A stretch of 64,000 nt of DNA. It comes from a virus. The stretch covers positions 1 to 64,000 of IMG/VR virus record IMGVR_UViG_3300010396_000010; one strand, 5' to 3'. Below are positions 2 through 56,285 of the stretch, piece by piece. Every line of letters begins with the position of its first letter. The first letter of the stretch is position 1. The notes beneath the pieces are model-generated. The model saw only the letters and a list, made by a program, of their open reading frames with translations, was not told the origin of the DNA and made no database searches. A program made the translations under genes and the position numbers.

Positions 2-388
2 AAAACACATTGGCTTGACGCGGCATGCGTGGGGGCGTCCACGCCCGCTACCTTGCATGTGGGACAGATCGTTCCTCTGGCGGTCACGGCGATGGGGCGG
101 CATAGTCGGCAGATGTGCCGAACTGATGCACATGGTTTCCCGAACAAGGCACCCAAAGCGACAAGCGTTGTTGGTGGATTCCGTACTGGCGATATGGTGC
201 GAGCGGTCGTGCCAGTCAGCAGCACCAAAGCGGGAGTCTATGTGGGGCGCATTGCCATTCGCGCGACAGGCTCCTGCAACATCAAGACCGCACAGGGAAC
301 CATTCAGCATATTCATGTGCGCTATTGCCATCCGCTCCATCGCGGCGACGGCTATTCCTACACGAACACGAAAGAGAGGTCCGCTTAA
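2..388 (+). CDS. iscB: IscB-type RNA-guided nuclease, C-terminal part (cut by window edge)
   Basis: This is the last ~128 residues of an IscB protein, the nuclease family encoded by IS200/IS605-like elements and related to Cas9. The visible reading begins with KTHWLDAACVGAS and later has HGFPNKAPK, GFRTGDMVRAVVP, GVYVGRIAIRATGS and YCHPLHRGDGYSY, the typical order of the IscB C-terminal (target-recognition/PLMP-like) part. The RuvC and HNH parts and the upstream omega RNA would lie left of the window. A GTG inside could start a shorter reading, but the frame is open to the first base, so the gene is truncated by the window and not necessarily broken. The family call is from remembered conserved residues. 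Confidence 0.82.
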   Translation, partial: KTHWLDAACVGASTPATLHVGQIVPLAVTAMGRHSRQMCRTDAHGFPNKAPKATSVVGGFRTGDMVRAVVPVSSTKAGVYVGRIAIRATGSCNIKTAQGTIQHIHVRYCHPLHRGDGYSYTNTKERSA

Positions 389-2100: not shown

Positions 2101-2137
2101 ACTAATAGTTGACATGATGTAATTGGCGTGGTATAGT
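2101..2137 (+). promoter_or_regulatory. Promoter with ACTAATA upstream box
   Basis: ACTAATAG (2101-2108) abuts TTGACA (2109-2114); after 17 bases comes TATAGT (2132-2137). The start of transcription should fall near the ATCAC at 2144. The same upstream box is found at 19760, 51267, 52970 and 60440. Confidence 0.75.
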
Positions 2138-2169
2138 GTAGGCATCACACGAATAAAGGAGATGCTTAC

Positions 2170-3045
2170 ATGAACGAGTCCAAACAATTTCCCGCCACCT
2201 GGGCCGCACTGCTGACGGACTACGATCCCAATGACCACTTGTTGCAACTGGAACGGTTCGACAAGCGCACACAAAAGAAGATCATCAACGATTATCTGAA
2301 CGTGCAAAATCGCCTGATGTGGTTCTTAAAGGACCAGCGTGCATTGATCCTGGCTGGCGTTGCCACCACCGCGTATGTCATTCAAACGGAAATGGTGGAG
2401 CATGACCAGCAAGAAAAATGGGCCAACTTCAAAACCTATGTGCGCGACGTGCTGGGCAATGAGGCGACCATGTACGGTTCGGAGTCGGTGCGGGACTTCG
2501 GGGACTATCTGGAAAAAGCCAGCACCAAATCGTTGGGACGCGCCCTCTTGCTGCTAGGCTATGGCACAGCGTTCGCTGACGAATTGGACGAGGGGGAGCG
2601 CGTCGTAGATGCGCCGACCGAGCGCAAAGAAGGCAGCGAGAAGAAGTCCGCACCTACTCGCCCGCAACAGCAACAGAACACCGCCCCTGCGCAACCACAG
2701 ACACGCACAGCACCAGCACCGCAACCGCAAGAGACACCGCAAACTACGATGTCCTCCGAGGAATATGTCAAATCGTTCATCGAGAGGTTCGGCATTGGCA
2801 AACTCGCTATGTCCTCGTTCGTGTCGCGGGAAAAGCTCACAAAAGAGTGGGATGTCCTAGCGGCAGCCCTGCGCAACCCGGAGAAAGCGGCACATTGCTG
2901 CGTCACGTCCTGGACGATGGCCCACAAGTTCACCATCGATCAGATCGTGGACCTGATGCGGCGTGAGAAGATGACAAACTACCAGCAGGTGTGGGCGGCG
3001 ATCCAGAAGGACGACCGTGATATCATGGCTGGCCTGACTGCCTAA
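2170..3045 (+). CDS. Probable Rad52/DdrA-like ssDNA-annealing protein
   Basis: A 291-residue protein. Residues ~85-145 hold the block YGSESVRDFGDYLEKASTKSLGRALLLLGYGTAFADEL, which resembles the conserved core (SE-x-DFxDFxEKAxTKAxGRALAALGxGT) of phage proteins related to the Rad52/DdrA single-strand annealing group. The middle (~150-190) is a Pro/Gln-rich linker, and the last ~90 residues form a separate helical domain. It heads an early operon that contains a VRR-NUC nuclease, in keeping with a recombination role. RBS AAAGGAG-like is eleven bases upstream of the ATG. The family call rests on the one block and could be wrong. Confidence 0.5.
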   Translation: MNESKQFPATWAALLTDYDPNDHLLQLERFDKRTQKKIINDYLNVQNRLMWFLKDQRALILAGVATTAYVIQTEMVEHDQQEKWANFKTYVRDVLGNEATMYGSESVRDFGDYLEKASTKSLGRALLLLGYGTAFADELDEGERVVDAPTERKEGSEKKSAPTRPQQQQNTAPAQPQTRTAPAPQPQETPQTTMSSEEYVKSFIERFGIGKLAMSSFVSREKLTKEWDVLAAALRNPEKAAHCCVTSWTMAHKFTIDQIVDLMRREKMTNYQQVWAAIQKDDRDIMAGLTA

Positions 3046-3891: not shown

Positions 3892-4252
3892 GCGGTTGAG
3901 CGTTGAGGATGTGCGGATGCTGCTCTGGCGGCAGATGCCCGAAGACGATCTGGAAGAATTTATCCGCGAAATGGCAAAGGCGCACCATTGGATGCGGTAT
4001 CACACCCGGCGCTCCCAGCACTCGGAGTCGGGGTGGCCCGATGATGTGCTGGTCCGGGGCGGCGACATGATCATCGTGGAGAATAAGCGCGAGGGGACGC
4101 GCTACCGCCCGTCAGCGGCGCAGCAGCAATGGCTTGACGCGCTGCGGCAGGTGCAGCGTATCCATGTCGATTTCTGGCAACCCCACGACCAGGATCGGAT
4201 TGCACGCCTACTGGAACACGGCATAGCAAACGGCCAGCACATCACAAGATAG
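3857..4252 (+). CDS. VRR-NUC domain nuclease
   Basis: A 131-residue protein matching the stand-alone phage VRR-NUC type of the PD-(D/E)XK superfamily. The catalytic block is GWPDDVLVRGGDMIIVENKREG (Asp of PD, then E-x-K), followed by SAAQQQWLDALRQVQRIHVDFWQPHD, the usual Q-x-x-WL helix and the terminal W-x-P strand. Such nucleases cut branched DNA, for example Holliday junctions. The start is GTG with GAGGA nine bases upstream. It lies between the annealing-type protein and the replication initiator, as is common in phages. Confidence 0.86.
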   Translation: MQKKANLLTPPERLSVEDVRMLLWRQMPEDDLEEFIREMAKAHHWMRYHTRRSQHSESGWPDDVLVRGGDMIIVENKREGTRYRPSAAQQQWLDALRQVQRIHVDFWQPHDQDRIARLLEHGIANGQHITR

Positions 4253-4266
4253 AAAGAGACAAGGCG
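4241..4266 (+). promoter_or_regulatory. ATCACAAG-GAGAC leader (no hairpin copy)
   Basis: ATCACAAG at 4241-4248 and GAGAC at 4256-4260 precede the ATG at 4267. The same two boxes at the same distances stand before five other small genes. Here the leader overlaps the end of the VRR-NUC gene and no hairpin was seen before it. Confidence 0.55.
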
Positions 4267-4506
4267 ATGCAAAAACCAGACAGCGCATTCGTGCGGTGCA
4301 TCTGCTGTGTGCGCGGGTGCTACGGCGACCGCTCGTGCGGTGCAGGGGCATTCACCCGCGACGAAACCAGCGGATGCTTTAACGGCAGAGTGCGCCCAAC
4401 AGGCTATGCACAAAAGAAAAACGCTGCCATCAACCAGCGTGAGTTCAGCGATCTCATTTATCCCAAAGGTGTGACGTGGCAAGGTCGCACGAAGGATCAG
4501 GCATGA
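4267..4506 (+). CDS. Small cysteine-rich protein
   Basis: A 79-residue protein with CICCVRGC, SCGAG and SGCFNG segments, i.e. six cysteines, which could bind zinc. No family recognised. It has no AGGAG site but the ATCACAAG/GAGAC leader, and its stop overlaps the initiator start (ATGA), so it may couple translation of the initiator. Confidence 0.65.
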   Translation: MQKPDSAFVRCICCVRGCYGDRSCGAGAFTRDETSGCFNGRVRPTGYAQKKNAAINQREFSDLIYPKGVTWQGRTKDQA

Positions 4507-8399: not shown

Positions 8400-9290
8400 A
8401 TGGCCGCGCAACGCGACGACGATCTGTATGAGGATATGCCTGATGATGAGGCGATGCCTGATGCGCAGATGGGTGATGACGTACAAGCGTATCTCTTGGA
8501 AATCGGGCGTTATCCGCTGCTGACCGACGCAGAAGAATTGGCGCTGGCACAGCGCATCGCGCAAGGCGACGCCGATGCTAAGCGGATCTTCATCGAGTGC
8601 AACCTGCGATTGGTGGTCAGCATTGCCAAACGATTTGTGCGTTACACGCACTCGCTGCCGCTGCTCGATCTCATCCAAGAGGGGAACATTGGCCTGATAC
8701 GGGCCGTGGAGAAGTTCGACTGGCGGCGAGGGAATCGGTTCAGCACGCATGCGACGTGGTGGATTCGCCAGGACATTACACGTGGCATCATGAGTAAGGG
8801 GCGTGCCATTCGTCTGCCTGAGCATGTGGCGATAGCCCTGAATCGCCTCAAGCGTCTGCGCAACGCCCTCATGCGTGACACGGGCGTGTTGCCCACCTAC
8901 GAGGAGATCGCCGCCAAGGCGGAGATGCCGACCCGGCGCGTGAGGGAACTGTTCGGATTCGATGATGGCCCCCTGTCGCTCGATGCCGCAGAGTACGGCG
9001 ACGACCACGACACGCCGTTGGCTGACATCCTGCCGGACACCACCAGCGCCGCGCCAGATGCTATCGCCACCTTGGCGGATATTAGCGCATTGGATGATGC
9101 ATTGGAACGGCTCTCGCCCCGCGAACGTGAGGTGTTGCGACTGCGCAAGGGCGTGGTCGATGGGCATGAATGGACGCTGGCCGAGATCGGTCAGAAATTT
9201 GGGCGCACCCGCGAGTGCATCCGCCAGATCGAAACCAGGGCGCTGCGCAAACTCCGCGCACCCGCCATGATGCATGCCCTCGTTGACTAA
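8400..9290 (+). CDS. Phage-encoded sigma-70 family RNA polymerase sigma factor
   Basis: A 296-residue group 1/2-like sigma factor. Region 1.2 is at ~26-55 ([19 protein letters not shown]), region 2 at ~60-127 ([48 protein letters not shown]), region 3 at ~130-185 and region 4 at ~235-290 ([32 protein letters not shown]). The long region 1.1 is missing; the N-terminus is just acidic. Residues of 2.4 and 4.2 look canonical, so it should read TTGACA/TATAAT-type promoters, which is what the phage promoters here look like. It could redirect polymerase in the middle or late period. RBS GGAGGG is upstream. Confidence 0.92.
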
Positions 9291-14461: not shown

Positions 14462-14563
14462 GGGTGCATCAACTACGCGCAAGTGTTGGATACGGGCCGC
14501 ACCGTGCCGCTCAGTCGCATTTTCGTGTTGACGGTAATCTTCCGAGGACGTGGAGGAAAAACA

Positions 14564-15469
14564 ATGCAGCAACCATCAGAGCCGATGGACGACGAAGTGA
14601 CACAGATTATTCGGCCCAAAGCGGGAATGCGTTTTGCGGAATTTGTGTTTGATCGCCAGATCGGTGAGGGCGCGGCAAGTGAAGTGTGGTTAGCCCATGA
14701 CTTCTTTGGCGAGCGAGCAGCCATTAAGATTGTGACGCGCAGCGAGGACCGGCAGTTCGAGGATCGTCATTATGCGCGGCGCTTGCTGATTGAGGGGGAA
14801 ACGATGCTGAACCTGCATCACCCCAACATCCTGCATGTAAAGCGTACCGGGATGGATATCCATTGGTACTACATGATCATGGCGTATGTCACAGGCGGGA
14901 CCGTCGCAAGCGCATTGGAGCGCAAGGGGCGCATGCCACTACATCAGGCGCTTGCCGTCACCAACAATGTGCTGCATGCTCTGGAATATGCCCATGCACG
15001 CGGCATCGTCCATCGGGACATCAAGCCGCAGAACATTCTGCTGGACCCGCCAGCAGGGCGCGTGCTGCTGGCGGACTTCGGCATCCTCTACCGCCAGCGT
15101 AAGGCTAGCGACCGCATGACGCTTCCCGGCAAGGTGCTAGGAACTGCCGCGTATATGGCCCCGGAACAGGTACGTGGCCGCGACCTCGATGCCCGCACTG
15201 ATCTCTATGCAGTCGGCTGCATGCTGTACGAAATGCTCTATGGGCAACCGCCATTTGGCAAGAAGTACGGCGACGATCTCGCCATTGCGCGACGCCAGGT
15301 GAGCGAGCCGGTGGTCTTCCCCGCGACGCCGGCCCTGTCGCATCAACTGCAAGCAGTGATCGGGCGCGTACTGGAAAAGGAACCCGCCAAACGCTATCAG
15401 CATGCCGCAGCGTTCCGTCGCGCCCTCGCGCCGTTCTACACGGTGTTCCCACAGAAAGGCGACCGCTGA
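14564..15469 (+). CDS. Hanks-type serine/threonine protein kinase
   Basis: A 301-residue complete kinase domain: glycine loop GEGAASEV (34-41), catalytic Lys55 in AIK, HRDIKPQN (150-157), DFG (171-173), GTAAYMAPEQ (193-202) and the conserved DLYAVGCMLYEML after it. There is no transmembrane helix and no PASTA or other sensor domain, so it acts in the cytoplasm. The start at 14564 follows GGAGGAAAA; a longer reading from 14483 has no site. It has its own promoter downstream of the lysis terminator, so it is controlled apart from lysis. It may act on host polymerase or defence proteins, as phage kinases do; that is inference. Confidence 0.93.
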   Translation: MQQPSEPMDDEVTQIIRPKAGMRFAEFVFDRQIGEGAASEVWLAHDFFGERAAIKIVTRSEDRQFEDRHYARRLLIEGETMLNLHHPNILHVKRTGMDIHWYYMIMAYVTGGTVASALERKGRMPLHQALAVTNNVLHALEYAHARGIVHRDIKPQNILLDPPAGRVLLADFGILYRQRKASDRMTLPGKVLGTAAYMAPEQVRGRDLDARTDLYAVGCMLYEMLYGQPPFGKKYGDDLAIARRQVSEPVVFPATPALSHQLQAVIGRVLEKEPAKRYQHAAAFRRALAPFYTVFPQKGDR

Positions 15470-17498: not shown

Positions 17499-18143
17499 TC
17501 AACTCCAAGGACCGAGATTAACGATGTACTCCAGTGCTTCTGCGTTGCCGATCACCTTGTAAGCATGATCGCCGCAATCCCAGCAATCAAAGCGCGCTAG
17601 CCATTTCTTTGTTTTCCATCCTGTGTGCTGCTTGGCTTGATCTCCTGTGAGATCCAGTTTGGGATTGTAGTAAAACAACGTCACTGTGTTATCTGTTGTT
17701 TCTTTACAATCCCAGCAGAAATGCCCTGCCCTTTCTTTGGCAGTCCAAGCATCCCCGTTTTGCAGTAACTTCATGTGTTCTTTCGCACTTGCAAAAGTTT
17801 TTGGCCTTCTTTTCGTGTTTTGTTCCTGCCTATCCAGACGGCCATGCTCAGGAAATAGCAGCCCCAATGCATCTGCATTGGGGAGCATACCTAGATGATA
17901 ATCTTCACTTTCGTTGTAGCGTGCCGCTCCATCAAGTGCATCATCAAGGACGTAGAAAACGCCGTTCATGATACGACCAAGGACACGATCAAAAACGACA
18001 TAGCCGTTACTGATTGGCAATACGGCATGACGCGCCTTTAAGAAGTTTGGTGTACCAGCGTTCTCTTGTGCTGGTTTCCATCCGGTCATCCTTAGTACCG
18101 TCTCTGCTATCTGCAAGGATTTTGAATTGACTTGCTGTGTCAT
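17499..18143 (-). CDS. Unknown protein with two CWDC zinc-type motifs
   Basis: A 214-residue protein. Two CWDC motifs (in HFCWDCKETTDN and FDCWDCGDHAYKV), about 45 residues apart, suggest a zinc site near the C-terminus. The N-terminal part (FLKARHAVLPISNGYVVFDRVLGRIMNGVFYVLDDALDG) looks like a compact alpha/beta fold. The ATG overlaps the integrase stop (ATGA), so it is coupled to integrase. A lysogen function such as exclusion is possible but not shown. Confidence 0.7.
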   Translation of the reverse strand: MTQQVNSKSLQIAETVLRMTGWKPAQENAGTPNFLKARHAVLPISNGYVVFDRVLGRIMNGVFYVLDDALDGAARYNESEDYHLGMLPNADALGLLFPEHGRLDRQEQNTKRRPKTFASAKEHMKLLQNGDAWTAKERAGHFCWDCKETTDNTVTLFYYNPKLDLTGDQAKQHTGWKTKKWLARFDCWDCGDHAYKVIGNAEALEYIVNLGPWS

Positions 18144-19486
18144 GCTTCGTTCCCTTCTCTGAGATAAAGTGTTGCCTGGTTTTCGCCCTCTTGCGTCCAC
18201 CGCTGCCAGAAGGTGTGCCAATCCTGCTGCATCAGTGCCGCGACGATGGCGTGGCAGTCAGCCTCAGAATCAGCATAGATGGCGATGGCACGCCTCAGTA
18301 CTTCCCATTGCTTCTCGGTGAGCGAGGGGCAAGAAGCGGCAATGGCGAGGGGCGGCATCTCGCCACTAAGGATCTGCTGCATCACCACTGTTGCCGCCTG
18401 GTGCATGGCGGGCGTCGCGTGCGAGTAGAGGTCGAGCGTGACGGCGATACTACTGTGTCCTAACATCTCGCTCACCAGTTTGGGGTGCATCCCCGCTTCG
18501 AGCAAGAGCGTGGCGGCAGTGTGGCGCATGTCGTGAAAGCGAATCTCCGGTATGCCCGCCCGCTTAATAGCAGGCTTGAAGTACCGGGTGGTTGCGCTTT
18601 CCGGGCCAACGGGCGTTCCTAGCGTCGTCGTGAAGACTAAGCCATGCTCGTTATGCCAGCGGTCGCCCATCGCCTCGGCTTCCTCTTGCTGCCGCTCACA
18701 ATGGCGTTGTAAGGCGTCAATCGCCAACGAGGTCAGACAAACGGTATGCGTGGACGCATGCGTCTTGGGCTGCTTCATCGTGAGCTTGCCCTTGATGCGC
18801 TGCAAGTTGCCCCGCACTTGAATCCATCCCCGTTCCAAATCGACGGTTGACCAGCGTAGACCAAAAAGTTCCCCTTCGCGCATGCCGGTTGAGAGTGCGA
18901 GAACAAACAAGGCTTCGTAACGGTCGCCCTTGATGACATCAAGAAACCGCCGCGCCTCATTGACGCTCCACGTTGTATGTTCCTTGCGGTCCTTGCGGGG
19001 TGCCTCAATCATGTCGGCGGGATTGCGTAGGAGCACGCCCTGCTTTACCGCTGCTTCAAGGGCGATGTGCAGGATGCGGTGAATATGATTCACTGTTGTT
19101 CCTGACAGCCCCTCTTTGAATCGCTGTGCATAGAGCTTTTGCAGATGCGCAGCGGTGAGTTTGCTTGGGGCAATGTCCATCAGTTCTTGGAAGTAGAGGC
19201 GAACACATTTGCGGTAGTTTTCCGCTGTTTTTCCTGGTCGGCTCTGTTCCTTGTTCGCCAGCCATACCTCAAAGAACTGCCGCAACGTGGTGAAGTCGTT
19301 ACCGGGCATCATGCCCCGCTGGTGTTCCGCCTCAGCCAGCAGCGCCTTGATCTTGGCCTGGACGCCAGCGCGTGTGTCATCCCGAACGGTTCTGCGTTTG
19401 CCGTCTGGCATCGACACGCGCCCCATCCAACGCCCATCGGGTTGTTTCGTGTAGGTGCCTTCGTTGTTGCCTCTGCGACCGGCCAT
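18140..19486 (-). CDS. int: Phage integrase, tyrosine recombinase
   Basis: A 448-residue enzyme. The N-terminal arm-binding-like part (GTYTKQPDGRWMGRVSMPDGKRRTV, 10-35) is followed by a SAM-like core-binding domain (~65-155) and the catalytic domain with Arg203, Lys241, His318-x-x-Arg321, His344 and the nucleophile Tyr354 in LDLYSH. About 70 residues continue past the usual end (SLTEKQWEVLRRAIAIYADSE), an uncommon tail. It is preceded by an excisionase gene (overlap) and followed by two passenger genes. It should catalyse integration and excision at an att site that I could not identify. Confidence 0.95.
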   Translation of the reverse strand: MAGRRGNNEGTYTKQPDGRWMGRVSMPDGKRRTVRDDTRAGVQAKIKALLAEAEHQRGMMPGNDFTTLRQFFEVWLANKEQSRPGKTAENYRKCVRLYFQELMDIAPSKLTAAHLQKLYAQRFKEGLSGTTVNHIHRILHIALEAAVKQGVLLRNPADMIEAPRKDRKEHTTWSVNEARRFLDVIKGDRYEALFVLALSTGMREGELFGLRWSTVDLERGWIQVRGNLQRIKGKLTMKQPKTHASTHTVCLTSLAIDALQRHCERQQEEAEAMGDRWHNEHGLVFTTTLGTPVGPESATTRYFKPAIKRAGIPEIRFHDMRHTAATLLLEAGMHPKLVSEMLGHSSIAVTLDLYSHATPAMHQAATVVMQQILSGEMPPLAIAASCPSLTEKQWEVLRRAIAIYADSEADCHAIVAALMQQDWHTFWQRWTQEGENQATLYLREGNEA

Positions 19487-21094: not shown

Positions 21095-21148
21095 GTGTCT
21101 AAGAAACATTAGTAATCTTTGCATAAACGGCGCGAAAGGAGGCTAGTG

Positions 21149-22123
21149 GTGGATAGTGAACTGACAACTCATTCGCTTGATGACATGATCGAGCAATGGG
21201 TTAGGGCAAAGTTCCAAATAACCAAAAGCGAAAGAACGGCAAAGGCATATATCGAAACACTGATACGGTTTCGCTCTTGGCTGCAACGCCATGATCTTGA
21301 TTTGGATAGTCCAGCACAAGTTATTGTGCCAAAGGCTCTTGAATGGCTAGCGCAGTCACGGCATCCAAGTAAGAAGGAAGTTACCGCAGGTACATTCAAT
21401 CAGCGTCGAGCCATTCTTTCCAGTTTCTACACCTACGCCATTCGTCAAGGCTACGCCATTGAAGTGAATCCAATGCTGCGCATCGATCCCATGCGTGGTG
21501 CTGCCCGTCGAGGAACGCAAGGTGTTTCAATTGAAACCGTCAGGCAAAATCTTCTTGCCATCAATCAGTCAACATTGGTGGGTTTGCGTGACTTTGCCCT
21601 TATAGAATTTGCAGCTATGACGGGCAAACGCGCACATGAGTTGATCGCACTCAACTTGGGCGATCTTCACGTTCAAAATGACGGCGTTCTCATTGCATGG
21701 GAAACACTGAAAGGTGGAGATAAGCAGGAGCGGTTATATGAGTACCCGCACGCGGCTAACCTCCTGCGCTATCTCATGGTACAGTATGGCCCCGAATGGC
21801 CCTCGCTCCCGAAGGGTACTCCGGTTTGGTCGTCACAATCCTTCAATACAGGAAAAGACGGCAAGCGCCTAACTCGCAATGGGTTGGCGTATATCTACGA
21901 ACGCCGCATTGGAACGACGAAGGTTCATGACACGCGCCGCATATTCGCACAAACAGCGTTTCGTGTGGGCGCATCAGCACCACAGGTTCAGCAGCTTATG
22001 GGGCATCGCACTCTTGCGGCAACACAACGCTATGCAGAGGCAGAACAAACAGCCATCAACCCATTTGCTAACAAAATGGGAAAATTGCTCGGCTTAACTG
22101 CCGACGAACAGAAAGAGGATTAG
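21149..22123 (+). CDS. Second tyrosine recombinase, XerD-like
   Basis: A 324-residue recombinase with SAM-like N-domain (~8-105) and catalytic residues Arg161 (TGKRAHEL), Lys188, His260-x-x-Arg263 (HDTRR), His286 and Tyr295 (TQRYAE). The start is taken at GTG 21149 because AAAGGAGG lies six bases before; 21146 is possible. It is unlike the integrase at 18140: no arm domain and shorter. It might resolve phage dimers, move the following cargo gene, or come from a separate element. Confidence 0.9.
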   Translation: MDSELTTHSLDDMIEQWVRAKFQITKSERTAKAYIETLIRFRSWLQRHDLDLDSPAQVIVPKALEWLAQSRHPSKKEVTAGTFNQRRAILSSFYTYAIRQGYAIEVNPMLRIDPMRGAARRGTQGVSIETVRQNLLAINQSTLVGLRDFALIEFAAMTGKRAHELIALNLGDLHVQNDGVLIAWETLKGGDKQERLYEYPHAANLLRYLMVQYGPEWPSLPKGTPVWSSQSFNTGKDGKRLTRNGLAYIYERRIGTTKVHDTRRIFAQTAFRVGASAPQVQQLMGHRTLAATQRYAEAEQTAINPFANKMGKLLGLTADEQKED

Positions 22124-23527: not shown

Positions 23528-23723
23528 ATGTATGCCCCAGGCGCTATGTACTCCCCTTCGCTGGCTTGTCACTATTCGCTAGTGCAACAACCGGTAGTCG
23601 CGTTCGGACTGCATGCCGGTCCTCGGAGAGCCGTTCGTCATCACCAGAAGGGCATACGTTCCAGTGATGCAGTAGGCACTTCCATCATAGCATATCGCCT
23701 ACATGTTGTCAACAACCTACACG

Positions 23724-23770
23724 AAAACGCCCACCCGCTCAACGTCTGCGCAGACCGGAGCGGATGGGCG
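23724..23770 (-). terminator. Terminator of the late operon
   Basis: On the minus strand GAGCGG/CCGCTC and TGGGCG/CGCCCA arms (one mismatch) enclose an inner GTCTGCGCAGAC hairpin and are followed by TTTTCG. It lies about 90 bases after the last tail gene. Confidence 0.65.
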
Positions 23771-23795
23771 TCTATCACAAGATGCAGCGGGAGAC
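23728..23795 (+). other. Hairpin plus ATCACAAG-GAGAC module without a gene
   Basis: On the plus strand the hairpin 23728-23770 is followed three bases later by ATCACAAG (23774-23781) and GAGAC (23791-23795), as in the 49-50 kb cassette. No ATG follows at the usual distance, so this may be a leftover copy. Confidence 0.5.
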
Positions 23796-23862
23796 AAAAC
23801 CTACTGCACGTGTTCAGTGTCGCATAGACCAGCGCGTGCGTCAAGCGCCATAGACAGAATGC

Positions 23863-46253: not shown

Positions 46254-47759
46254 CTACCAGTTCGCGGTGTGGAATACGCGGGTATCCTGATGGTCTTTCA
46301 CCAACGCTAGCCGTTTTTCCAGACTGAGGAACGCCGCGCGTCCCGCCATCGCCGTGATCGCGTCACCCACGCCGTCAGCCTGATCATCATGCCGACCATT
46401 GGGAATTTGAATCAGTTCGGTTTCATAGTCATAGATCCAGGGAGCGCCACGCCGATGGTAGACGGACTTTGCCCGATAGTGCGCCGCCGTTGTTGCCTGG
46501 CGACTCTCTTTATCCCCATGCCGCTCTAGTTCGATGATGGGCAGTCCTAACCGCCGCGCATACTGGATGAGGGTAAGCTGGTAGGCGACCTTCTCAATGC
46601 CCACCGCGTAAGGATGCCATCGCGTATATGCTGTGTTGATCTCGTCCGGTTGTTCAGGACCAGGGAGTTTCTTGCGAACGATATCCACCACGAAGAAGCG
46701 GCCTTGGTGTGAGGCCACCGTCGCAATGACGAAATAGTCCGCCTTGGTCTTGACACTTGCCGCAGGGTCCACCGCCTGAAACCAGCGACAGGCACGGAAA
46801 CTGACCGTCTCCTCAACGCCACTACTGTTCGTGAAGGTGATGCATTCGCGCTGCTCATCGACTTCGGCATACTGGAACCACTCCCGCTTGAAGGTGTTGC
46901 CTTCTTCGCTGCCGGGGTTGCCCTGGTAGAGACAGAGGAAATCAATGGGGTCCAGATCCTTCCGAATCTCGCGCAGCGCGTCAATGCCCCACACATCCGG
47001 CCAGTAGGATTCTTCGTTATCCGCCTCGCCCGTAATGGCGGGGAACGTCACGAGGTCAAATCCCATCTTTGCTAGTCGCGGCACCGCATCATCATAGTGC
47101 CAGCGGTTGCAGACAAAGATGATGCGCCCACCGGGTTTGAGGCGACTCTTGATCACGGTCATAAAACGCCGGATAAACCGCGCCCGCCACGTCGGACTCT
47201 CAATCTCGTTCGGGTCAAACGGGTCGTCCAGAATAATCAGGTCGGCGCGACGCCCAAGAGCGCCACCCATGAAGCCCATGCTGGAATACTGCGGGTCTTT
47301 CGCGCCCTGGTGACTCCACCCATCCTTGTCAACTATCGGCCATTTGCCGCTATGATCCCGCCACTTGAAGTACAAGCCCCGACTGGACCAGCCACGTTCT
47401 TTGTCCGGCATCACATCAGGAAAGATTTCCTCATGCCGCCCGTTTTGCTCATACACCTGCTGCAACGCCGTCAAGTAGGCGACAGCTTTATCATCGTTGG
47501 CGTGCAGGTGTAGCACAATCCAGTCAGGGTGATTGCCAATAATCCACGCTGGGGCGATCTCCGAGATCCACGTGCTTTTGCCGCTGCCGGGTGGACATAC
47601 CACCACCGATCCCTTATTCCACTCCCTTGGCGCGACGGCATTGATAATGCCCTGATGGTGTGGCGCTGGTCGCAGCCCACGTGTCAGGACGCCATAGATG
47701 GCAAGAGATTCCCTCCCCCGGAGGATTTCGAGGGGTTTGAGTGCAGTGGGATCATCCAT
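46254..47759 (-). CDS. terL: Terminase large subunit
   Basis: A 501-residue enzyme. Walker A CPPGSGKST (55-63), Walker B LIILDDP (174-180), the coupling motif CNRWHYDD (216-223), and a RuvC/RNase-H nuclease with AVDPAAS (Asp330), GIEKV (Glu388) and GRHDDQADG (454-462). It packages DNA and cuts it. I start at ATG 47759 because AGGTG precedes it; a GTG at 47768 is the alternative. The small subunit gene is three kilobases away, beyond an oppositely read cassette. Confidence 0.93.
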   Translation of the reverse strand: MDDPTALKPLEILRGRESLAIYGVLTRGLRPAPHHQGIINAVAPREWNKGSVVVCPPGSGKSTWISEIAPAWIIGNHPDWIVLHLHANDDKAVAYLTALQQVYEQNGRHEEIFPDVMPDKERGWSSRGLYFKWRDHSGKWPIVDKDGWSHQGAKDPQYSSMGFMGGALGRRADLIILDDPFDPNEIESPTWRARFIRRFMTVIKSRLKPGGRIIFVCNRWHYDDAVPRLAKMGFDLVTFPAITGEADNEESYWPDVWGIDALREIRKDLDPIDFLCLYQGNPGSEEGNTFKREWFQYAEVDEQRECITFTNSSGVEETVSFRACRWFQAVDPAASVKTKADYFVIATVASHQGRFFVVDIVRKKLPGPEQPDEINTAYTRWHPYAVGIEKVAYQLTLIQYARRLGLPIIELERHGDKESRQATTAAHYRAKSVYHRRGAPWIYDYETELIQIPNGRHDDQADGVGDAITAMAGRAAFLSLEKRLALVKDHQDTRVFHTANW

Positions 47760-47781
47760 GTATTTCACCTAATACTTGTCA

Positions 47782-47991
47782 TTAATCCCACATAGGCTTC
47801 GTCGCCACTTTCCCGCATTCCCAATCCGCAGTTCCCCAATCCAGATACGACATACCATGCACACCACTCTGTTGCAGCGTGTGCTTCACGGCATGCCGGA
47901 ACTGCTTATGAGCATGCCGCTTATGCCGTTTCCTGCTGCCGTTATGGCAGTGCTGACACGAACAGGACTTGTACTCCCGGAACTTGTTCAT
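47782..47991 (-). CDS. Small Cys/His-rich basic protein
   Basis: A 69-residue protein: CSCQHCHNGSRKRHKRHAHKQFRHAVKHTLQQSG, likely a zinc knuckle with a basic patch. Near the terminase gene it may touch DNA or RNA. Family unknown. Confidence 0.6.
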   Translation of the reverse strand: MNKFREYKSCSCQHCHNGSRKRHKRHAHKQFRHAVKHTLQQSGVHGMSYLDWGTADWECGKVATKPMWD

Positions 47992-47994
47992 TGC

Positions 47995-48213
47995 TTACGC
48001 CTCTTTCGGCGCTTCCCGCTTATTTGCTCGGATAATCAAGGTCTTTGGTAGTCCTCTCGCTGTCAATAGTTCGCGCAATTCATCATACGAAAACACTCTC
48101 GCCCCTTCGGGAATGGTGCATATCTCGCAGAGTGGCGATGGCATCATAAAACCACCACGGATATCATGTGCAACCATATCCGCAATCGCCTCTTGATATT
48201 CATCATTCGTCAT
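47995..48213 (-). CDS. Hypothetical protein, 72 aa
   Basis: YQEAIADMVAHDIRGGFMMPSPLCEICTIPEGARVFSYDELRELLTARGLPKTLIIR. One CEIC motif. Its start overlaps the stop of the Acb2-like gene (ATGA), with AGGAATGAG as ribosome site. Function unknown. Confidence 0.65.
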   Translation of the reverse strand: MTNDEYQEAIADMVAHDIRGGFMMPSPLCEICTIPEGARVFSYDELRELLTARGLPKTLIIRANKREAPKEA

Positions 48214-48512
48214 GGCTTCTCATTCCTGGCTATAGCCGCATTCGCCCACATGACCGCTTCTTCCAATGCTGTCAACGCCAAACTCCGCTCTCGTGACTCC
48301 GGGGCCAGTTCGAGAAAGAGTAGCGCCAACGCTTTCCCCGCATCCCGTAGTTGCCCATACCGCACCACCTGCGTTCCCTGTGGTGCATGATAGGTGAAGT
48401 TATGGATCACCCGATCCCGATTAACGGGCGTCACCTTTGACTTCTTGGCTGCCACTGGCTTTCCCTTTAGTTGTGTTGCAGGGATGAATAACTCTTTGTC
48501 GTCACTAGCCAT
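48210..48512 (-). CDS. Acb2/Tad1-like hairpin protein, candidate anti-CBASS sponge
   Basis: A 100-residue protein. HNFTYHAPQGTQVVRYGQLRDAGKALALLFLELAPESRERSLALTALEEAVMWANAAIARNE matches, as I recall it, the Acb2/Tad1 hairpin family: a conserved F-x-YH-x-P start, a first helix, and the SREKSLALTxLEEAxMWANAAIAR helix. Characterised members bind cyclic nucleotide signals and so stop CBASS or Thoeris defence. It has GAGGAA upstream and overlaps the next gene. Binding of any nucleotide here is inference; many relatives are untested. Confidence 0.68.
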   Translation of the reverse strand: MASDDKELFIPATQLKGKPVAAKKSKVTPVNRDRVIHNFTYHAPQGTQVVRYGQLRDAGKALALLFLELAPESRERSLALTALEEAVMWANAAIARNEKP

Positions 48513-48515
48513 TGC

Positions 48516-48851
48516 TTATTCCTCACCCATCATGGCACGAAACACGATCTCATATTGGCGCGTGAACTCTCGGTCCGCCTCGCGCATCACGTTATAGATC
48601 CGTCCTGCTTCTTCCCGCCAGTGCTGCTGCATCTGCCGCTCGGCCTCATCACCGAAATCATCATGCAATCCTGCTACGATGCGCTCTATTTCCCGTAGCG
48701 TCTCTTCACTTATCACTGCCTGCCCCTTCGTCTGCTCCAATGAAATTTCTTTGTAGAATTTAGCGCGGTGCTTAGCCTTATCCACCGCGCCCCTTGTGCA
48801 ATCATCGGCCCCTATGCAGTTACACAGCCGCCCCTCGGTGACACGTGACAC
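48516..48851 (-). CDS. Hypothetical protein at the start of the late operon
   Basis: A 111-residue protein starting with GTG. CNCIGADDC near the N-terminus, then charged helices (TLREIERIVAGLHDDFGDEAERQMQQHWREEAGRIYNVMREADREF). It is the first gene of the minus-strand run into terminase. Unknown function. Confidence 0.6.
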   Translation of the reverse strand: MSRVTEGRLCNCIGADDCTRGAVDKAKHRAKFYKEISLEQTKGQAVISEETLREIERIVAGLHDDFGDEAERQMQQHWREEAGRIYNVMREADREFTRQYEIVFRAMMGEE

Positions 48852-49026
48852 GGCGCATGCTGCGGCGAAGACATCTTATCAGCGATGGGCGACGGCACCA
48901 CATGACGGCGCTCACAGCGCGTCACGGCATGCACCTCGCAGGTATGGCGTCTATACGCGCATGCGCCTACGCACACACGGATATCGAACGGTAGGCGCAT
49001 AATGGATATGACTATTGGCAGTATAT

Positions 49027-49055
49027 TTGACATGGATACTCAGATGTGTGATACT
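49027..49055 (+). promoter_or_regulatory. Promoter of the small-gene cassette
   Basis: TTGACA (49027-49032), 17-base spacer, GATACT (49050-49055). The transcript would have a leader of about 340 bases. Confidence 0.65.
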
Positions 49056-49280
49056 GAATCAACAACTGAATACCACCTGATGAGCGAAGGGGACACGCGG
49101 GACCACGAACACCGTTACCAAGACTGGTCCATCTTGGTTACTTGAACAATTGAATCAGCAGAGACGTATTAGAGCGGACCTATCCGATCTTATGAGTAGC
49201 GTGCAGTGTGAATGCATGCCGAGATCTCAGAGTAGGGGGACGATCCTCAACCTGTGAGAGCCGGGACTCTGATATGCATA

Positions 49281-49352
49281 GCGGCAAGCAAAACCAGTGT
49301 TTGGTAGGACTCATAATCCTGCCTGTGCAGATGCGACTTCTGCGCTTGTCGC
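49281..49352 (+). tRNA. tRNA-like fold with CAT anticodon
   Basis: GCGGCAA pairs with TTGTCGC (one G-U) 72 bases apart. The anticodon arm TAGGA-CTCATAA-TCCTG has a canonical seven-base loop with CAT (Met). The T arm GCAGA-TGCGACT-TCTGC is fully paired. A D stem CAAA/TTTG can be drawn. Faults: one base instead of two before the D arm, two extra bases between T arm and acceptor, G at position 55 and no GG in the D loop. The acceptor can extend to nine pairs. It may be an odd tRNA or a tRNA-mimic leader. Confidence 0.42.
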
Positions 49353-49354
49353 CC

Positions 49355-49398
49355 GGCTCAGATGAGCCTATCACAAGAAAAGAAACGAGACAACGACC
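49355..49398 (+). promoter_or_regulatory. Hairpin-ATCACAAG-GAGAC module 1
   Basis: Hairpin GGCTC-AGAT-GAGCC (49355-49368), ATCACAAG at 49370-49377, GAGAC at 49387-49391, ATG at 49399. There is no AGGAG-type site. Confidence 0.75.
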
Positions 49399-49569
49399 AT
49401 GTCAAAGGAACAACTGCTCAAGATCATTGCTCATGCACAAGCACAAATCGATGAGATGGAAGCAGAGGAATCACTGTACGAGTATGAGTACCGCGAAGAG
49501 CGCGCTTTGGATATGCGTATGGAAGCATACGCCTATTATAGCGGACTCAATGACGACTACGATTATTAG
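49399..49569 (+). CDS. Small acidic protein, 56 aa
   Basis: Translation from ATG gives MSKEQLLKIIAHAQAQIDEM, then a Glu/Tyr-rich stretch (ESLYEYEYREERALDMRMEAYAYYSGL) and ends NDDYDY. It is a single acidic helix rich in tyrosine. Support comes from the leader module and the ordered codon use. Unknown function; acidity might mimic DNA or bind a basic partner, which is only a guess. Confidence 0.6.
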   Translation: MSKEQLLKIIAHAQAQIDEMEAEESLYEYEYREERALDMRMEAYAYYSGLNDDYDY

Positions 49570-49633
49570 GCCGAAACCTAGGGGACTATACATCCCTGAT
49601 GGTCTGCTGGTTATGCCAGCACTGAGGATGGCC

Positions 49634-49679
49634 GCTCTCACTGAGAGCTAGTATCGCAAGAAAAAAAAAGAGACAAACC
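49634..49679 (+). promoter_or_regulatory. Hairpin-ATCGCAAG-GAGAC module 2
   Basis: Hairpin GCTCTC-ACT-GAGAGC (49634-49648), ATCGCAAG at 49653-49660 (one base differs), GAGAC at 49670-49674, ATG at 49680. Confidence 0.72.
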
Positions 49680-49943
49680 ATGAACGTCTATCAGCAGACC
49701 TTGTACGACCGTGCAGCAGATGGCACTTTCCAACCCAGCGTAACGGAATCCGGTGTCGCCTGTCAGTCGTGCGTACAAGACTGGATCAATGGCAGCAGTC
49801 AACAGCGTCGGCAAGATGATGGATCGCTCGTCTTGGTTGAGTGGCATCATTACAATCTGATCTCCATCATCATCATCAACCAGCCAAACCAATACCTTGA
49901 CGCATGCGAGACGTTGCACACTGCATCATGCGTGTGCTGCTAA
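49680..49943 (+). CDS. Small cysteine-containing protein, 87 aa
   Basis: GVACQSCVQDWINGSSQQRRQDDGSLVLVEWHHYNLISIIIINQPNQYLDACETLHTASCVCC. Six cysteines, the last ones at the very end. A hydrophobic IIIIN patch lies in the middle. Family unknown. Its stop codon lies in the loop of the next hairpin. Confidence 0.6.
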   Translation: MNVYQQTLYDRAADGTFQPSVTESGVACQSCVQDWINGSSQQRRQDDGSLVLVEWHHYNLISIIIINQPNQYLDACETLHTASCVCC

Positions 49944-49982
49944 GACAGCACACATCACAAGAAAGAAAAGAGACAAACCACC
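49932..49982 (+). promoter_or_regulatory. Hairpin-ATCACAAG-GAGAC module 3
   Basis: Hairpin GTGTGCTG-CTAAGA-CAGCACAC (49932-49953) with the upstream stop codon in its loop, ATCACAAG at 49954-49961, GAGAC at 49970-49974, ATG at 49983. Confidence 0.78.
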
Positions 49983-50192
49983 ATGAAAACCATCATGCTG
50001 CTGATCGTATCCATCATCCTGTTGTGCGCCATTGGCACCGCACACATGCACACAGCAACCTACCCCAGCAACGTGTGTGCCAGCAATCAGCACATTGCCT
50101 CGTATGCACAGCCAACCACCGTGCGGGTACTGGTGCCAGGCAGCACCGATCCCCAAGTGGTCGATATCCAGCAGTGCGTAGCCAACCACTAG
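49983..50192 (+). CDS. Small exported protein, 69 aa
   Basis: MKTIMLLIVSIILLCAIGTAHMH is a clear signal peptide or membrane anchor, with a Cys at position 15 that could suit a lipoprotein only poorly. The ~45-residue mature part has two cysteines (NVCASNQ and QQCVANH) that may form a disulfide. A role at the envelope, such as superinfection exclusion, is possible but unproven. Confidence 0.65.
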   Translation: MKTIMLLIVSIILLCAIGTAHMHTATYPSNVCASNQHIASYAQPTTVRVLVPGSTDPQVVDIQQCVANH

Positions 50193-50242
50193 CCATAGCG
50201 CATGCCGGTACAGCCGTAGCCTTCGATGGCAGCATGCGTACC

Positions 50243-50289
50243 GATCCTCAGAGCGAGGATCTATCACAAGAGAAACGAGACAAGAAACA
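50243..50289 (+). promoter_or_regulatory. Hairpin-ATCACAAG-GAGAC module 4
   Basis: Hairpin GATCCTC-AGAGC-GAGGATC (50243-50261), ATCACAAG at 50263-50270, GAGAC at 50277-50281, ATG at 50290. Confidence 0.78.
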
Positions 50290-50580
50290 ATGATGCAAGC
50301 AAACAAGGCGTACCACTTCATCACGAGCGCGGGCGAAATGGGCATATACAGTACCCGCAATCGTAACACGGCCATCATCCATGCCATCGTGCGCGATACT
50401 ACCGCATATGACGATCTGGCTCGGTATGCATCGAGCGATTATCCAGTTTTCGCTCGCTGCGTGCGGGGGTACATCAACGATTTCCACGAGTCGCTATCCC
50501 CGATCTTGTATCAGCTTGCAACGATCCCCAATCTCTGCTGGCTGTATGACATGCTCCGGCAGATGGCCGATATCGGATAG
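50290..50580 (+). CDS. Hypothetical protein, 96 aa
   Basis: AYHFITSAGEMGIYSTRNRNTAIIHAIVRDTTAYDDLARYASSDYPVFARCVRGYINDFHESLSPILYQLATIPNLCWLYDMLRQMADIG: a compact, mostly helical protein. Last gene of the cassette, ending nine bases before the giant palindrome. Not recognised. Confidence 0.6.
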   Translation: MMQANKAYHFITSAGEMGIYSTRNRNTAIIHAIVRDTTAYDDLARYASSDYPVFARCVRGYINDFHESLSPILYQLATIPNLCWLYDMLRQMADIG

Positions 50581-50588
50581 GGTGAGGA

Positions 50589-50648
50589 TGGGGGATATAC
50601 TTCTCTAGAGAGGATATATATATCCTCTCTAGAGAAGTATATCCCCCA
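50589..50648. repeat. Perfect 58-bp palindrome (60 with flanking pair)
   Basis: GGGGGATATACTTCTCTAGA and so on: bases 50590-50618 are the exact reverse complement of 50619-50647, with no central spacer; T50589 and A50648 extend it by one pair. It lies between convergent genes. In RNA it would be a very stable hairpin, but no T-tract follows on either side. It could stop RNA polymerase, block RNase decay, or form a cruciform. Confidence 0.9.
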
Positions 50649-50741
50649 GATCTGCCGCATTGCAAGGCAATGCGAAAGTTTCACCACGAACTGCATAACA
50701 TTGCATGAGAGTACCGCAAAAACACCGCACAATGCGGAACA

Positions 50742-51251
50742 TTATGCCTCATCATCGGATGGCGTGATCTGGCGTGGTGCTTCACTGCGAGACTGGATGA
50801 TCTGCGCGTCGATCATGGCGATCTGATCGTCACTGATGATCCCGGCGCGTTGTGCTTCGGCGAGGATGTGGACGTGCAGGTGTTGCTGTGGCTGTGGTGG
50901 TGTCTGGTCCTGGGGACGTTGCTTGGCATAGGACTCAGGATGGCGGCGCTCTAAGAGCCACGCTGCGGCTTTCCAATCGGTGTCGGCTGCGGCTGTGACT
51001 TTGACCAGTAGGGCATGAGCGCCAAGGGCTTGCGCACGTTGGAGAGACGCAACTAATGCAACATATGGTTGCTCTCCTGACTCACCTTTCCGTAGCCATT
51101 GCCGTAGCGTCTCATGCGAGATACCGCAAGCCTCAGCAGCAAGGTGGTACGTCATGCCGTCAGCAATGAGCGCGACCAGTTGCACCATGAGGCTATCGGT
51201 GAGTTTGGTAGGTCGCCCTCCAGCGTAGCGCGTGATATCGCTCTCACTCAT
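50742..51251 (-). CDS. terS: Terminase small subunit
   Basis: A 169-residue protein: GGRPTKLTDSLMVQLVALIADGMTYHLAAEACGISHETLRQWLRKGESGEQPY is the DNA-binding helix-turn-helix of small terminases, followed by SLQRAQALGAHALLVKVTAAADTDWKAAAWLLERRHPESYAKQ, a very typical second block. The C-terminal part is linker and helix. The start at 51251 follows AAAGGATAG. It should recognise the packaging site, yet it is not beside the large subunit. Confidence 0.85.
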   Translation of the reverse strand: MSESDITRYAGGRPTKLTDSLMVQLVALIADGMTYHLAAEACGISHETLRQWLRKGESGEQPYVALVASLQRAQALGAHALLVKVTAAADTDWKAAAWLLERRHPESYAKQRPQDQTPPQPQQHLHVHILAEAQRAGIISDDQIAMIDAQIIQSRSEAPRQITPSDDEA

Positions 51252-51266
51252 GGTACTATCCTTTTG

Positions 51267-51335
51267 ACTAATACTTGACATGAGTAGCAGGATATGCGAG
51301 AATGAAGTATCACAAGTGAATCGAGACAAGAGACA
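51267..51335 (+). promoter_or_regulatory. ACTAATA-box promoter with ATCACAAG-GAGAC leader
   Basis: ACTAATAC (51267-51274), TTGACA (51275-51280), 17-base spacer, GAGAAT (51298-51303). The expected transcript start (~51310) falls on ATCACAAG (51309-51316); GAGAC is at 51323-51327 and ATG at 51336. It links the promoter class to the leader modules. Confidence 0.78.
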
Positions 51336-51977
51336 ATGCAAGTTACTGTTACCGTGCAAGTGCCTGACAAGCACCGCACACGTGTTCGTCTGTTGCGCAT
51401 GCAGGTGCGACCCGGCGCAGTGGCGCTAGGGAAGGCGCACAGCCGGGCATTGCCAGCAACGCAAGAGATGCCGGTTATCGCGTCACCACTGGACGATCCT
51501 AATTTCATGGGCGGAGTGATGGCGTTACTGTATACGCCAGATCCCACACCCGGTCCCAAGCCACGTAAGGCATCGTGTGATATTGATGCGAAGCTCCTGG
51601 TTGAACTGTGCGATTTCCGTGAGACAGCGCAACGCAACGCCGATCAAGAGCAACAATTTGCCCAGGATCGCGCCGATGAACGCAGCACAGAAAACAAACT
51701 TCGGCAACGTCACGGCAAGGAATTGATTCCCGCTGATCCGGAAATGGAGCAAGAATCGGCTGGTAAGATTGCCGGATACTTGCTCGTTGCGGATGCGATG
51801 CAAGAAGTTATCACGGCATGTAAACGCGGTTTCGATGATTATCTCGCATGCTTACCAGCGCAAGTGGAATATCTAGAAAGCAACATGACCAATCAGAACG
51901 ACCCTTTTAGCAGCATGCGCGACAAAATTATTGCCGCCGAAGTCTCTGAAATCACGCGCCGATGGATGGGGGAATAA
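51336..51977 (+). CDS. Hypothetical protein, 213 aa
   Basis: A beta-like N-terminal part (VTVTVQVPDKHRTRVRLLRMQVRPGAVALG), then charged helices (ETAQRNADQEQQFAQDRADERSTENKLRQRHGKEL) and a C-terminal helical segment. Co-transcribed with the ParB-like gene, whose start lies five bases beyond its stop. Family unknown. Confidence 0.65.
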   Translation: MQVTVTVQVPDKHRTRVRLLRMQVRPGAVALGKAHSRALPATQEMPVIASPLDDPNFMGGVMALLYTPDPTPGPKPRKASCDIDAKLLVELCDFRETAQRNADQEQQFAQDRADERSTENKLRQRHGKELIPADPEMEQESAGKIAGYLLVADAMQEVITACKRGFDDYLACLPAQVEYLESNMTNQNDPFSSMRDKIIAAEVSEITRRWMGE

Positions 51978-56043: not shown

Positions 56044-56054
56044 CGTTTGTTCTC

Positions 56055-56285
56055 CTATCCTTGTGGTTCCACTAAGCGTCGTTCGCCGTTCTCCGACACC
56101 AATTCCACATGCGTCTTGTCGCCAAACTTCGCCCACCAGTTGACGGCCAGCGCCATCGCGTAATGCTCGTCACCGTCATAGGTTGACCAGTCCAAGAGGT
56201 TCCCCTTCTCATCCAGCACGCGCAACGTTTTCGTGTTGGTAGGGGGATCAGGAATGGGATCGTTAGCTACCGTTACACTTGCCAT
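56055..56285 (-). CDS. Hypothetical protein, 76 aa
   Basis: AAGGAGAAA precedes the ATG. KTLRVLDEKGNLLDWSTYDGDEHYAMALAVNWWAKFGDKTHVELVSENGERRLVEP: short alpha/beta protein. Unknown. The 73 bases after it up to the next stop hold nothing seen. Confidence 0.6.
   Translation of the reverse strand: MASVTVANDPIPDPPTNTKTLRVLDEKGNLLDWSTYDGDEHYAMALAVNWWAKFGDKTHVELVSENGERRLVEPQG

What the first reader, a model, noticed from the sequence alone, without database searches (positions are those of the whole stretch)
49355..50289. Repeated hairpin plus ATCACAAG plus GAGAC leader before tiny genes
Four consecutive small genes are each preceded by a different-sequence but same-shape hairpin, then at once by ATCACAAG (ATCGCAAG once) and GAGAC, then ATG. 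ATCACAAG-to-ATG is 29, 27, 29 and 27 bases; GAGAC-to-ATG is 12, 10, 13 and 13. Two more genes (4267, 51336) have the two boxes at 26-27 bases without the hairpin, and 23728-23795 has hairpin plus boxes but no gene. None of these leaders has a clear AGGAG site, unlike most other genes here. At 51336 the box sits where transcription should start, so hairpins in the cassette may be cut to give each gene the same 5' end. The stems vary but stay paired, so structure is kept. I know of no described system like this.
Basis: partly seen in the sequence, partly recalled or inferred. Interest (0 to 1): 0.88.

Follow-up and report, generated by a model that had tools for sequence, protein, structure and literature searches.

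The report
Repeated hairpin-fronted leader in a phage
An uncultivated temperate phage places the same short, unfolded leader sequence before several of its genes, fronted by a promoter in one or two cases and by a small RNA hairpin of unconserved sequence in five, which resembles the poorly understood 'start-associated sequences' of actinobacterial phages.

Summary
Exactly seven copies of ATC(A/G)CAAG-N6-9-GAGACAA occur in the 72,349-bp phage record (about 0.001 expected). All are on the + strand, and six lie 26-29 nt before the ATG of a plausible gene. Four consecutive tiny genes, plus one copy without a gene, have a hairpin ending 0-4 nt before the box. The hairpin arms are unrelated in sequence and exceed genome background. 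The leaders before genes are A-rich (50-63%) and almost the least paired of the phage's gene starts. GAGACAA lies where a Shine-Dalgarno would lie. At 51309 the box sits at the predicted +1 of a sigma-70-type promoter.

Best reading: a standard translation leader that starts at +1 where a promoter precedes it and is fenced off by a hairpin inside an operon. The claim that nothing similar is described is wrong: SAS/ESAS (cluster K and EF phages) and the cluster EC motif share the layout. No copy array was found in 2.9 million viral contigs or 50 distant relatives. New variant of a known kind.

The parts
49027..49055 (+). sigma-70-type promoter candidate (TTGACA-17-GATACT, TG before -10) upstream of the tiny-gene cluster
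49355..49368 (+). hairpin 1, GGCTC-AGAT-GAGCC, ends 1 nt before the box
49370..49398 (+). leader 1: ATCACAAG (49370-49377), spacer, GAGACAA (49387-49393), CGACC
49399..49569 (+). tiny gene 1, 56 aa, no family match
   Evidence: best coding score of six frames
49634..49648 (+). hairpin 2, GCTCTC-ACT-GAGAGC, ends 4 nt before the box
49653..49679 (+). leader 2: ATCGCAAG, A9, GAGACAA (49670-49676), ACC
49680..49943 (+). tiny gene 2, 87 aa, no family match
49932..49953 (+). hairpin 3, GTGTGCTG-CTAAGA-CAGCACAC, abuts the box; holds the stop codon of gene 2
49954..49982 (+). leader 3: ATCACAAG, spacer, GAGACAA (49970-49976), ACCACC
49983..50192 (+). tiny gene 3, 69 aa, hydrophobic N-terminus, no family match
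50243..50261 (+). hairpin 4, GATCCTC-AGAGC-GAGGATC, ends 1 nt before the box
50263..50289 (+). leader 4: ATCACAAG, AGAAAC, GAGACAA (50277-50283), GAAACA
50290..50580 (+). tiny gene 4, 96 aa, no family match
51275..51303 (+). sigma-70-type promoter candidate TTGACA-17-GAGAAT (TG before -10); predicted +1 at or next to A51309
51309..51335 (+). leader 5 without hairpin: ATCACAAG, TGAATC, GAGACAA (51323-51329), overlapping second GAGACAA; before a 213-aa gene (51336-51977)
4241..4266 (+). leader 6 without hairpin or evident promoter: ATCACAAG, ATAGAAA, GAGACAA, GGCG; overlaps the end of the upstream ORF; before a 79-aa ORF (4267-4506)
23727..23771 (+). long imperfect hairpin 2 nt before the orphan box; read on the - strand it is followed by TTTT and sits just past the end of the late genes
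23774..23797 (+). orphan leader: ATCACAAG, ATGCAGCGG, GAGACAA, no gene after it
2109..2137 (+). sigma-70-type promoter candidate TTGACA-17-TATAGT (TG before -10)
2144..2169 (+). variant leader ATCACACG-AATAAAGGAGATGCTTAC (26 nt to ATG, true SD AAGGAG where GAGACAA lies in the others), starts at predicted +1; gene 2170-3045
56044..56067 (-). possible variant leader ACCACAAGGATAGGAGAACAAACG (24 nt to ATG, SD AGGAG); within the background of the one-mismatch scan

Best explanation
The repeat is the phage's standard 5' leader for a subset of its genes: 26-29 nt, A-rich and single-stranded, beginning AUCACAAG and carrying GAGACAA at the Shine-Dalgarno position. Behind a sigma-70 promoter the leader is the first sequence transcribed (51309; variant at 2144). 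Inside the operon of four tiny genes, where a leader would otherwise follow coding sequence, a hairpin takes the place of the promoter. It walls the leader off from upstream RNA, so that the ribosome meets the same unpaired landing site each time. Shown from sequence: the repeat, its position, the hairpins and the predicted openness. Inferred: the promoters, the +1 positions, the hairpin as insulator and the effect on translation. Not known: what reads AUCACAAG (ribosomal protein S1 or the 30S subunit, or a dedicated RNA-binding protein).
For: Seven near-identical two-box copies against 0.0009 expected, fixed distance to ATG, one orientation. The five hairpin-fronted copies have arms with no shared sequence while the boxes are 96% identical, so box sequence and hairpin shape look separately maintained. 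Leaders 1-4 are 74-85% unpaired against 45 +/- 11% for 27 other gene starts, with paired sequence just upstream. The box coincides with predicted +1 at 51309, and a near-match (ATCACACG) at 2144, where a true SD (AAGGAG) stands in the GAGACAA position at the same 26-nt spacing. 4 of 12 strong promoters have at least 6/8 of the box at +1 against 3% of random positions (one of the four is the reported site). The downstream ORFs score best in the annotated frame.
Against: Copy 4241 has neither hairpin nor promoter and 23774 has no gene. The exact 8-base box is more conserved than mere openness needs. GAGACAA gives only three bases of SD pairing, and box 1 has no exact complement in E. coli 16S or 23S rRNA. 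No expression data exist. No relative carrying the leader was found, so conservation cannot be tested across genomes. The 'promoter or hairpin' pattern was noticed after looking.
Confidence: 0.5

Rival explanations
1. RNA processing: an endonuclease cuts at the hairpin/box junction, so each tiny gene gets its own mRNA starting with AUCACAAG, the same 5' end that promoter-driven copies have. The hairpin would remain as the 3' end of the upstream piece.
For: Hairpins end 0-4 nt before the box, and the box lies at predicted +1 at 51309 and, as a variant, at 2144. Hairpin 3 contains the stop codon of the preceding gene, as a 3' end would.
Against: Stems of 5-8 bp are short for RNase III (general knowledge). 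The gap between hairpin and box varies, copy 4241 has no hairpin, and no nuclease candidate was identified.
Confidence: 0.15
2. DNA-level sites: the boxes are binding sites of a phage regulator (repressor, stoperator-like or anti-elongation site) placed at gene starts and oriented with transcription.
For: Asymmetric, all in one orientation, one copy just downstream of a -10 element (51309), one orphan copy at the end of the late genes (23774). Stoperators are asymmetric, oriented repeats (PMC4351075, PMC9283540).
Against: Fixed 26-29 nt distance to ATG, GAGACAA in the SD position, A-rich open leader, and hairpins conserved in shape but not sequence all point to RNA. The L5 stoperator consensus (from memory) has no match with fewer than 2 mismatches.
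Confidence: 0.18
3. Gene-capture cassettes: the leader is simply a shared module by which small foreign genes were acquired or shuffled (moron-like), and its sequence identity reflects recombination more than current function.
For: The four orphan genes sit as a + strand block between terS (50742-51254, -) and terL (46254-47768, -), with a promoter candidate before (49027) and a perfect palindrome after (50590-50648). The orphan copy at 23774 looks like a leader that lost its gene.
Against: Hairpins and spacers differ completely while the boxes do not. Recent copying would carry the hairpin along, so the boxes must be held by selection or by recombination limited to under 30 bp.
Confidence: 0.12
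4. The hairpins are weak terminators or 3'-end protectors of the upstream gene and have nothing to do with the leader. The leader alone is the functional unit.
For: The 23774 hairpin read on - has a T-run and lies past the last late gene. Hairpin 3 overlaps a stop codon. Two leaders do without hairpin.
Against: None of the + strand hairpins is followed by a T-run. Hairpin 1 does not follow an evident gene. The hairpin-to-box distance (0-4 nt) is tighter than a terminator unrelated to the leader would need.
Confidence: 0.05

Closest known systems
[quoted passage not shown]
   Same: Short, highly conserved asymmetric repeat 3-9 bp before ATG of a subset of small non-structural genes. About half have an upstream inverted-repeat element. 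Conservation goes beyond the ribosome binding site. In Adephagia the ESAS contains a SigA-like promoter, comparable to the promoter-or-hairpin slot here.
   Different: Different sequence. SAS is 13 bp with an SD-like AGGAG; here there are two boxes over 26-29 nt and mostly no AGGAG. ESAS repeats are conserved in sequence and their authors argue against an mRNA hairpin; here the arms are unrelated in sequence but always pair.
SAS/ESAS-like motifs of Microbacterium cluster EF phages (PMC7302621)
   Same: A conserved 13-bp motif at the RBS position plus a second element immediately upstream.
   Different: Consensus GGGAAAGGACCCC and an upstream GTAGAG-centred motif, not a hairpin of free sequence.
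18-bp motif of Microbacterium cluster EC phages (PMC7302621)
   Same: Asymmetric, all in one orientation, 21-30 bp upstream of start codons, several before small orphan genes between terminase and portal, in a phage that also encodes a sigma factor and a ParB-like protein.
   Different: Motif TAGACTATAGGTGTAAGC with a conserved upstream CTAAC...GATTAGAC half in most copies and a normal RBS after it. I saw no consistent hairpin directly before it in Quhwah.
Stoperators of cluster A mycobacteriophages (PMC9283540, PMC4351075)
   Same: Asymmetric repeats oriented with transcription.
   Different: Bound by the repressor as DNA and not tied to start codons at a fixed distance. No matching consensus here.
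Early-promoter stem-loop cassettes of T4-type phages (named from memory; the primary paper is not in the held library)
   Same: Stem-loops linked to small variable genes in modular regions.
   Different: Those carry promoters; the hairpins here do not. Not compared by sequence.

Membership tests
SAS (cluster K) | 13-bp consensus GGGATAGGAGCCC, at most 2 mismatches, before start codons | tested here: not met
   Only one site with 2 mismatches, at 42167 (-), none at the leaders
SAS (cluster K) | conserved repeat 3-9 bp upstream of start codons of a subset of genes, conserved beyond the SD | tested here: met
   GAGACAA ends 3-6 nt before ATG in six of seven copies; only seven copies in the genome
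ESAS | 17-bp inverted repeats of conserved sequence upstream of the SAS | tested here: not met
   Hairpin arms 32% identical to each other, stems 5-8 bp
ESAS | SigA-like promoter within the upstream element | tested here: inconclusive
   Promoter-like at 51309 and at variant 2144, none recognised at the hairpin copies
Cluster EC start-proximal motif | 18-bp consensus TAGACTNTAGGTGTAAGC | tested here: not met
   No site within 3 mismatches
Stoperator | 13-bp repressor-binding consensus | tested here: not met
   No site with fewer than 2 mismatches to the L5 consensus (consensus from memory)
Stoperator | binding by the phage repressor and transcription arrest | not testable with these tools
   needs protein-DNA and transcription assays
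Known structured RNA families | match above gathering score in Rfam 15 | tested here: not met
   0 matches in the window; the region search at E<=1 gave only matches below the gathering scores, five of six on the palindrome
Intrinsic terminators | G+C-rich stem followed by a T-run on the transcribed strand | tested here: not met
   None of the four cassette hairpins listed by the scan

The most novel reading that the evidence does not exclude
A 'portable 5' end': within a polycistronic phage mRNA, hairpins of arbitrary sequence stand in for a promoter and give an internal leader the same properties (by cleavage or by insulation) as a true transcript start, with AUCACAAG recognised by the ribosome or by an unknown RNA-binding factor as the leader's first bases.
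Probability: 0.3. Interest if true: 0.65.

Novelty: new variant of a known kind. Interest (0 to 1): 0.47.

Why it matters
Start-associated repeats have been seen in actinobacterial phages since 2011 and their role is still described as unclear. This case offers a cleaner anatomy. The leader is split into two short boxes, the upstream element is conserved in shape only, and promoter-borne and hairpin-borne copies of the same leader occur in one genome. That lets the ideas of promoter, translation leader and processing site be tested against each other in simple reporters. If the hairpin works as an insulator or a 5'-end generator, it would also be a compact natural way to express several small genes evenly from one mRNA.

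Tried and rejected
Close relatives: no DNA match in 50,697 phage records. Terminase and portal relatives are only 25-37% identical, and capsid-protease-region, sigma and 51336-gene searches of viral contigs gave none. The one hit for tiny gene 4 (L132) covers 28 residues and shows no leader. Relatives of the 2170 gene (36-46%) lack the leader. Motif scan of 2.9 million viral contigs: 72 single hits, about what chance gives, no contig with an array. L026 looked alike at first, but no gene follows it. 50 relative records: no copies. A general search for start-proximal repeats in relatives gave noise. rRNA complementarity of the boxes: none exact in E. coli rRNA. Antisense RNA pairing with the leader: no complementary copy in the genome within 2 mismatches. 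Telomere palindrome/protelomerase idea for 50590-50648: no protelomerase family match. The N4-type hairpin-promoter idea was dropped because the distance from hairpin centre to box varies (about 8 to 11.5 nt) and no RNA polymerase was seen in the proteins scanned (inference). A sequence-only covariance model was built on an alignment that misplaced the GAGACAA box and was not used. Host not identified.

Full report
WHAT WAS CHECKED. The window is bases 1-64000 of a 72,349-bp virus record. It has a Mu/P23-45-type portal, terminase, Mu-like protease-family protein, two tyrosine recombinases, an RpoD-like sigma factor, a ParB-like protein and a Ser/Thr kinase, so it is a tailed and probably temperate phage. 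The host could not be identified; portal relatives are about 30% identical, in Gordonia, Arthrobacter and many other phages.

THE REPEAT IS REAL. ATC(A/G)CAAG, 6-9 nt, GAGACAA occurs at 4241, 23774, 49370, 49653, 49954, 50263 and 51309, always on the + strand. Within two mismatches there is no other place in the window and one poor site in the remaining 8 kb. The expected number is 0.0009 and the reversed control pattern gives none. Over 105 compared positions there is one substitution. Six copies lie 26-29 nt before an ATG whose frame has the best codon score of the six possible frames.

THE HAIRPINS ARE REAL, AND CONSERVED IN SHAPE ONLY. In front of the four tiny genes a perfect stem of 5-8 bp ends 0-4 nt before the box. 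Stems this good occur at 4.2, 1.9, 0.4 and 0.9% of positions, and four of seven by chance has P about 1e-4. The orphan copy at 23774 has a longer imperfect stem ending 2 nt before its box. Arms share 32% identity, boxes 96%. Copies 4241 and 51309 have none.

WHAT KIND OF ELEMENT. The leaders before genes are 50-63% A. Leaders 1-4 are 74-85% unpaired on prediction, against 45 +/- 11% for 27 other starts of the same phage; only one other start reaches that range. GAGACAA ends 3-6 nt before ATG in the genes with a leader, which is the Shine-Dalgarno position, although only GAG could pair.

NEW EVIDENCE: THE LEADER AND TRANSCRIPTION STARTS. The phage has a clear set of TTGACA-16..18-NANNNT promoters, 15 in the window against 4.8 expected, many with TG before the -10. 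At 51309 the box begins at the predicted +1. At 2144 a variant, ATCACACGAATAAAGGAGATGCTTAC-ATG, also begins at +1, with the same 26-nt length and a real AAGGAG where GAGACAA would be. Among 12 strong promoters, four have at least 6/8 of the box at +1 against 3% of positions. One of these is the reported site and the test was made after looking, so it is suggestive only. In the tiny-gene operon no promoter is recognised at the hairpins; a promoter candidate precedes the whole cluster at 49027. The hairpin thus occupies the place that a promoter occupies in the other copies.

INTERPRETATION. The simplest account is a standard leader that is open for ribosomes and, inside an operon, fenced off by a hairpin. 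It is not excluded, but short stems, a variable gap and the hairpin-less copy 4241 speak against a strict requirement. A DNA-binding role is possible, but the fixed spacing to ATG, the open leader and the sequence-free hairpins favour RNA. The tiny-gene block sits in reverse orientation between terS (50742-51254) and terL (46254-47768), with its own promoter candidate and a palindrome behind it, so it looks like an acquired (moron-like) block.

COMPARISON WITH WHAT IS KNOWN. Cluster K mycobacteriophages have 13-bp start-associated sequences 3-9 bp before the start codons of 11-19 genes, half of them with upstream 17-bp inverted repeats (PMC3203893). Later work found SigA-like promoters inside these upstream elements, the role still being unclear (PMC11373665, PMC12699233). 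Microbacterium cluster EF has a similar pair, and cluster EC has an 18-bp oriented motif 21-30 bp upstream of starts, partly before small genes between terminase and portal (PMC7302621). I fetched the EC phage Quhwah: its motif has conserved upstream sequence in most copies and no consistent adjacent hairpin. None of those consensus sequences occurs at the leaders here. So this works like a start-associated sequence but is not a member of any described one. What is new is the two-box leader, the structure-only hairpin, and the promoter/hairpin alternation.

LIMITS. No relative with the leader was found: one scan of 2.9 million viral contigs gave 72 single chance-like hits, and 50 relative records gave none. 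Near-identical records may have been withheld from the search. There is therefore no cross-genome covariation test. No expression data exist. Promoters and +1 positions are consensus predictions, and folding is predicted.

Noticed in passing
window 50590-50648: Perfect palindrome (28-bp stem, 4-nt loop, folding z = -10) between the convergent tiny genes (+) and terS (-); no T-run; could be a bidirectional terminator, an RNase III site or another inverted-repeat element.
   Followed up: partly
window, e.g. 1708, 2109, 9283, 21065, 49027, 51275, 60448 (+) and 19774, 23712, 54929, 60121 (-): A recognisable family of TTGACA-17 promoters, most with an extended -10 (TG), three times more than expected, which could give a first transcription map of the phage.
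   Followed up: partly
window 8400-9290: Full sigma-70-family factor (regions 1.2, 2, 3, 4), up to 49% identical to sigma factors in phage records; unusual for a phage of this size.
   Followed up: partly
window 14483-15469: Ser/Thr protein kinase gene within the early region, with a TTGACA promoter-like site just before it (14433).
   Followed up: no
window 18140-19486 (-) and 21119-22123 (+): Two different tyrosine recombinases close together in one phage.
   Followed up: no
window 23684-23771: A strong promoter-like site on the - strand (23712-23684) directly beyond the late-operon terminator-like hairpin that also fronts the orphan leader box; it reads towards a stretch without an assigned gene.
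   Followed up: no
window 46254-51254: terS (50742-51254, -) is split from terL (46254-47768, -) by a block of opposite-strand tiny genes, so late transcription starting at terS would have to cross the palindrome and the antisense of the tiny genes.
   Followed up: partly
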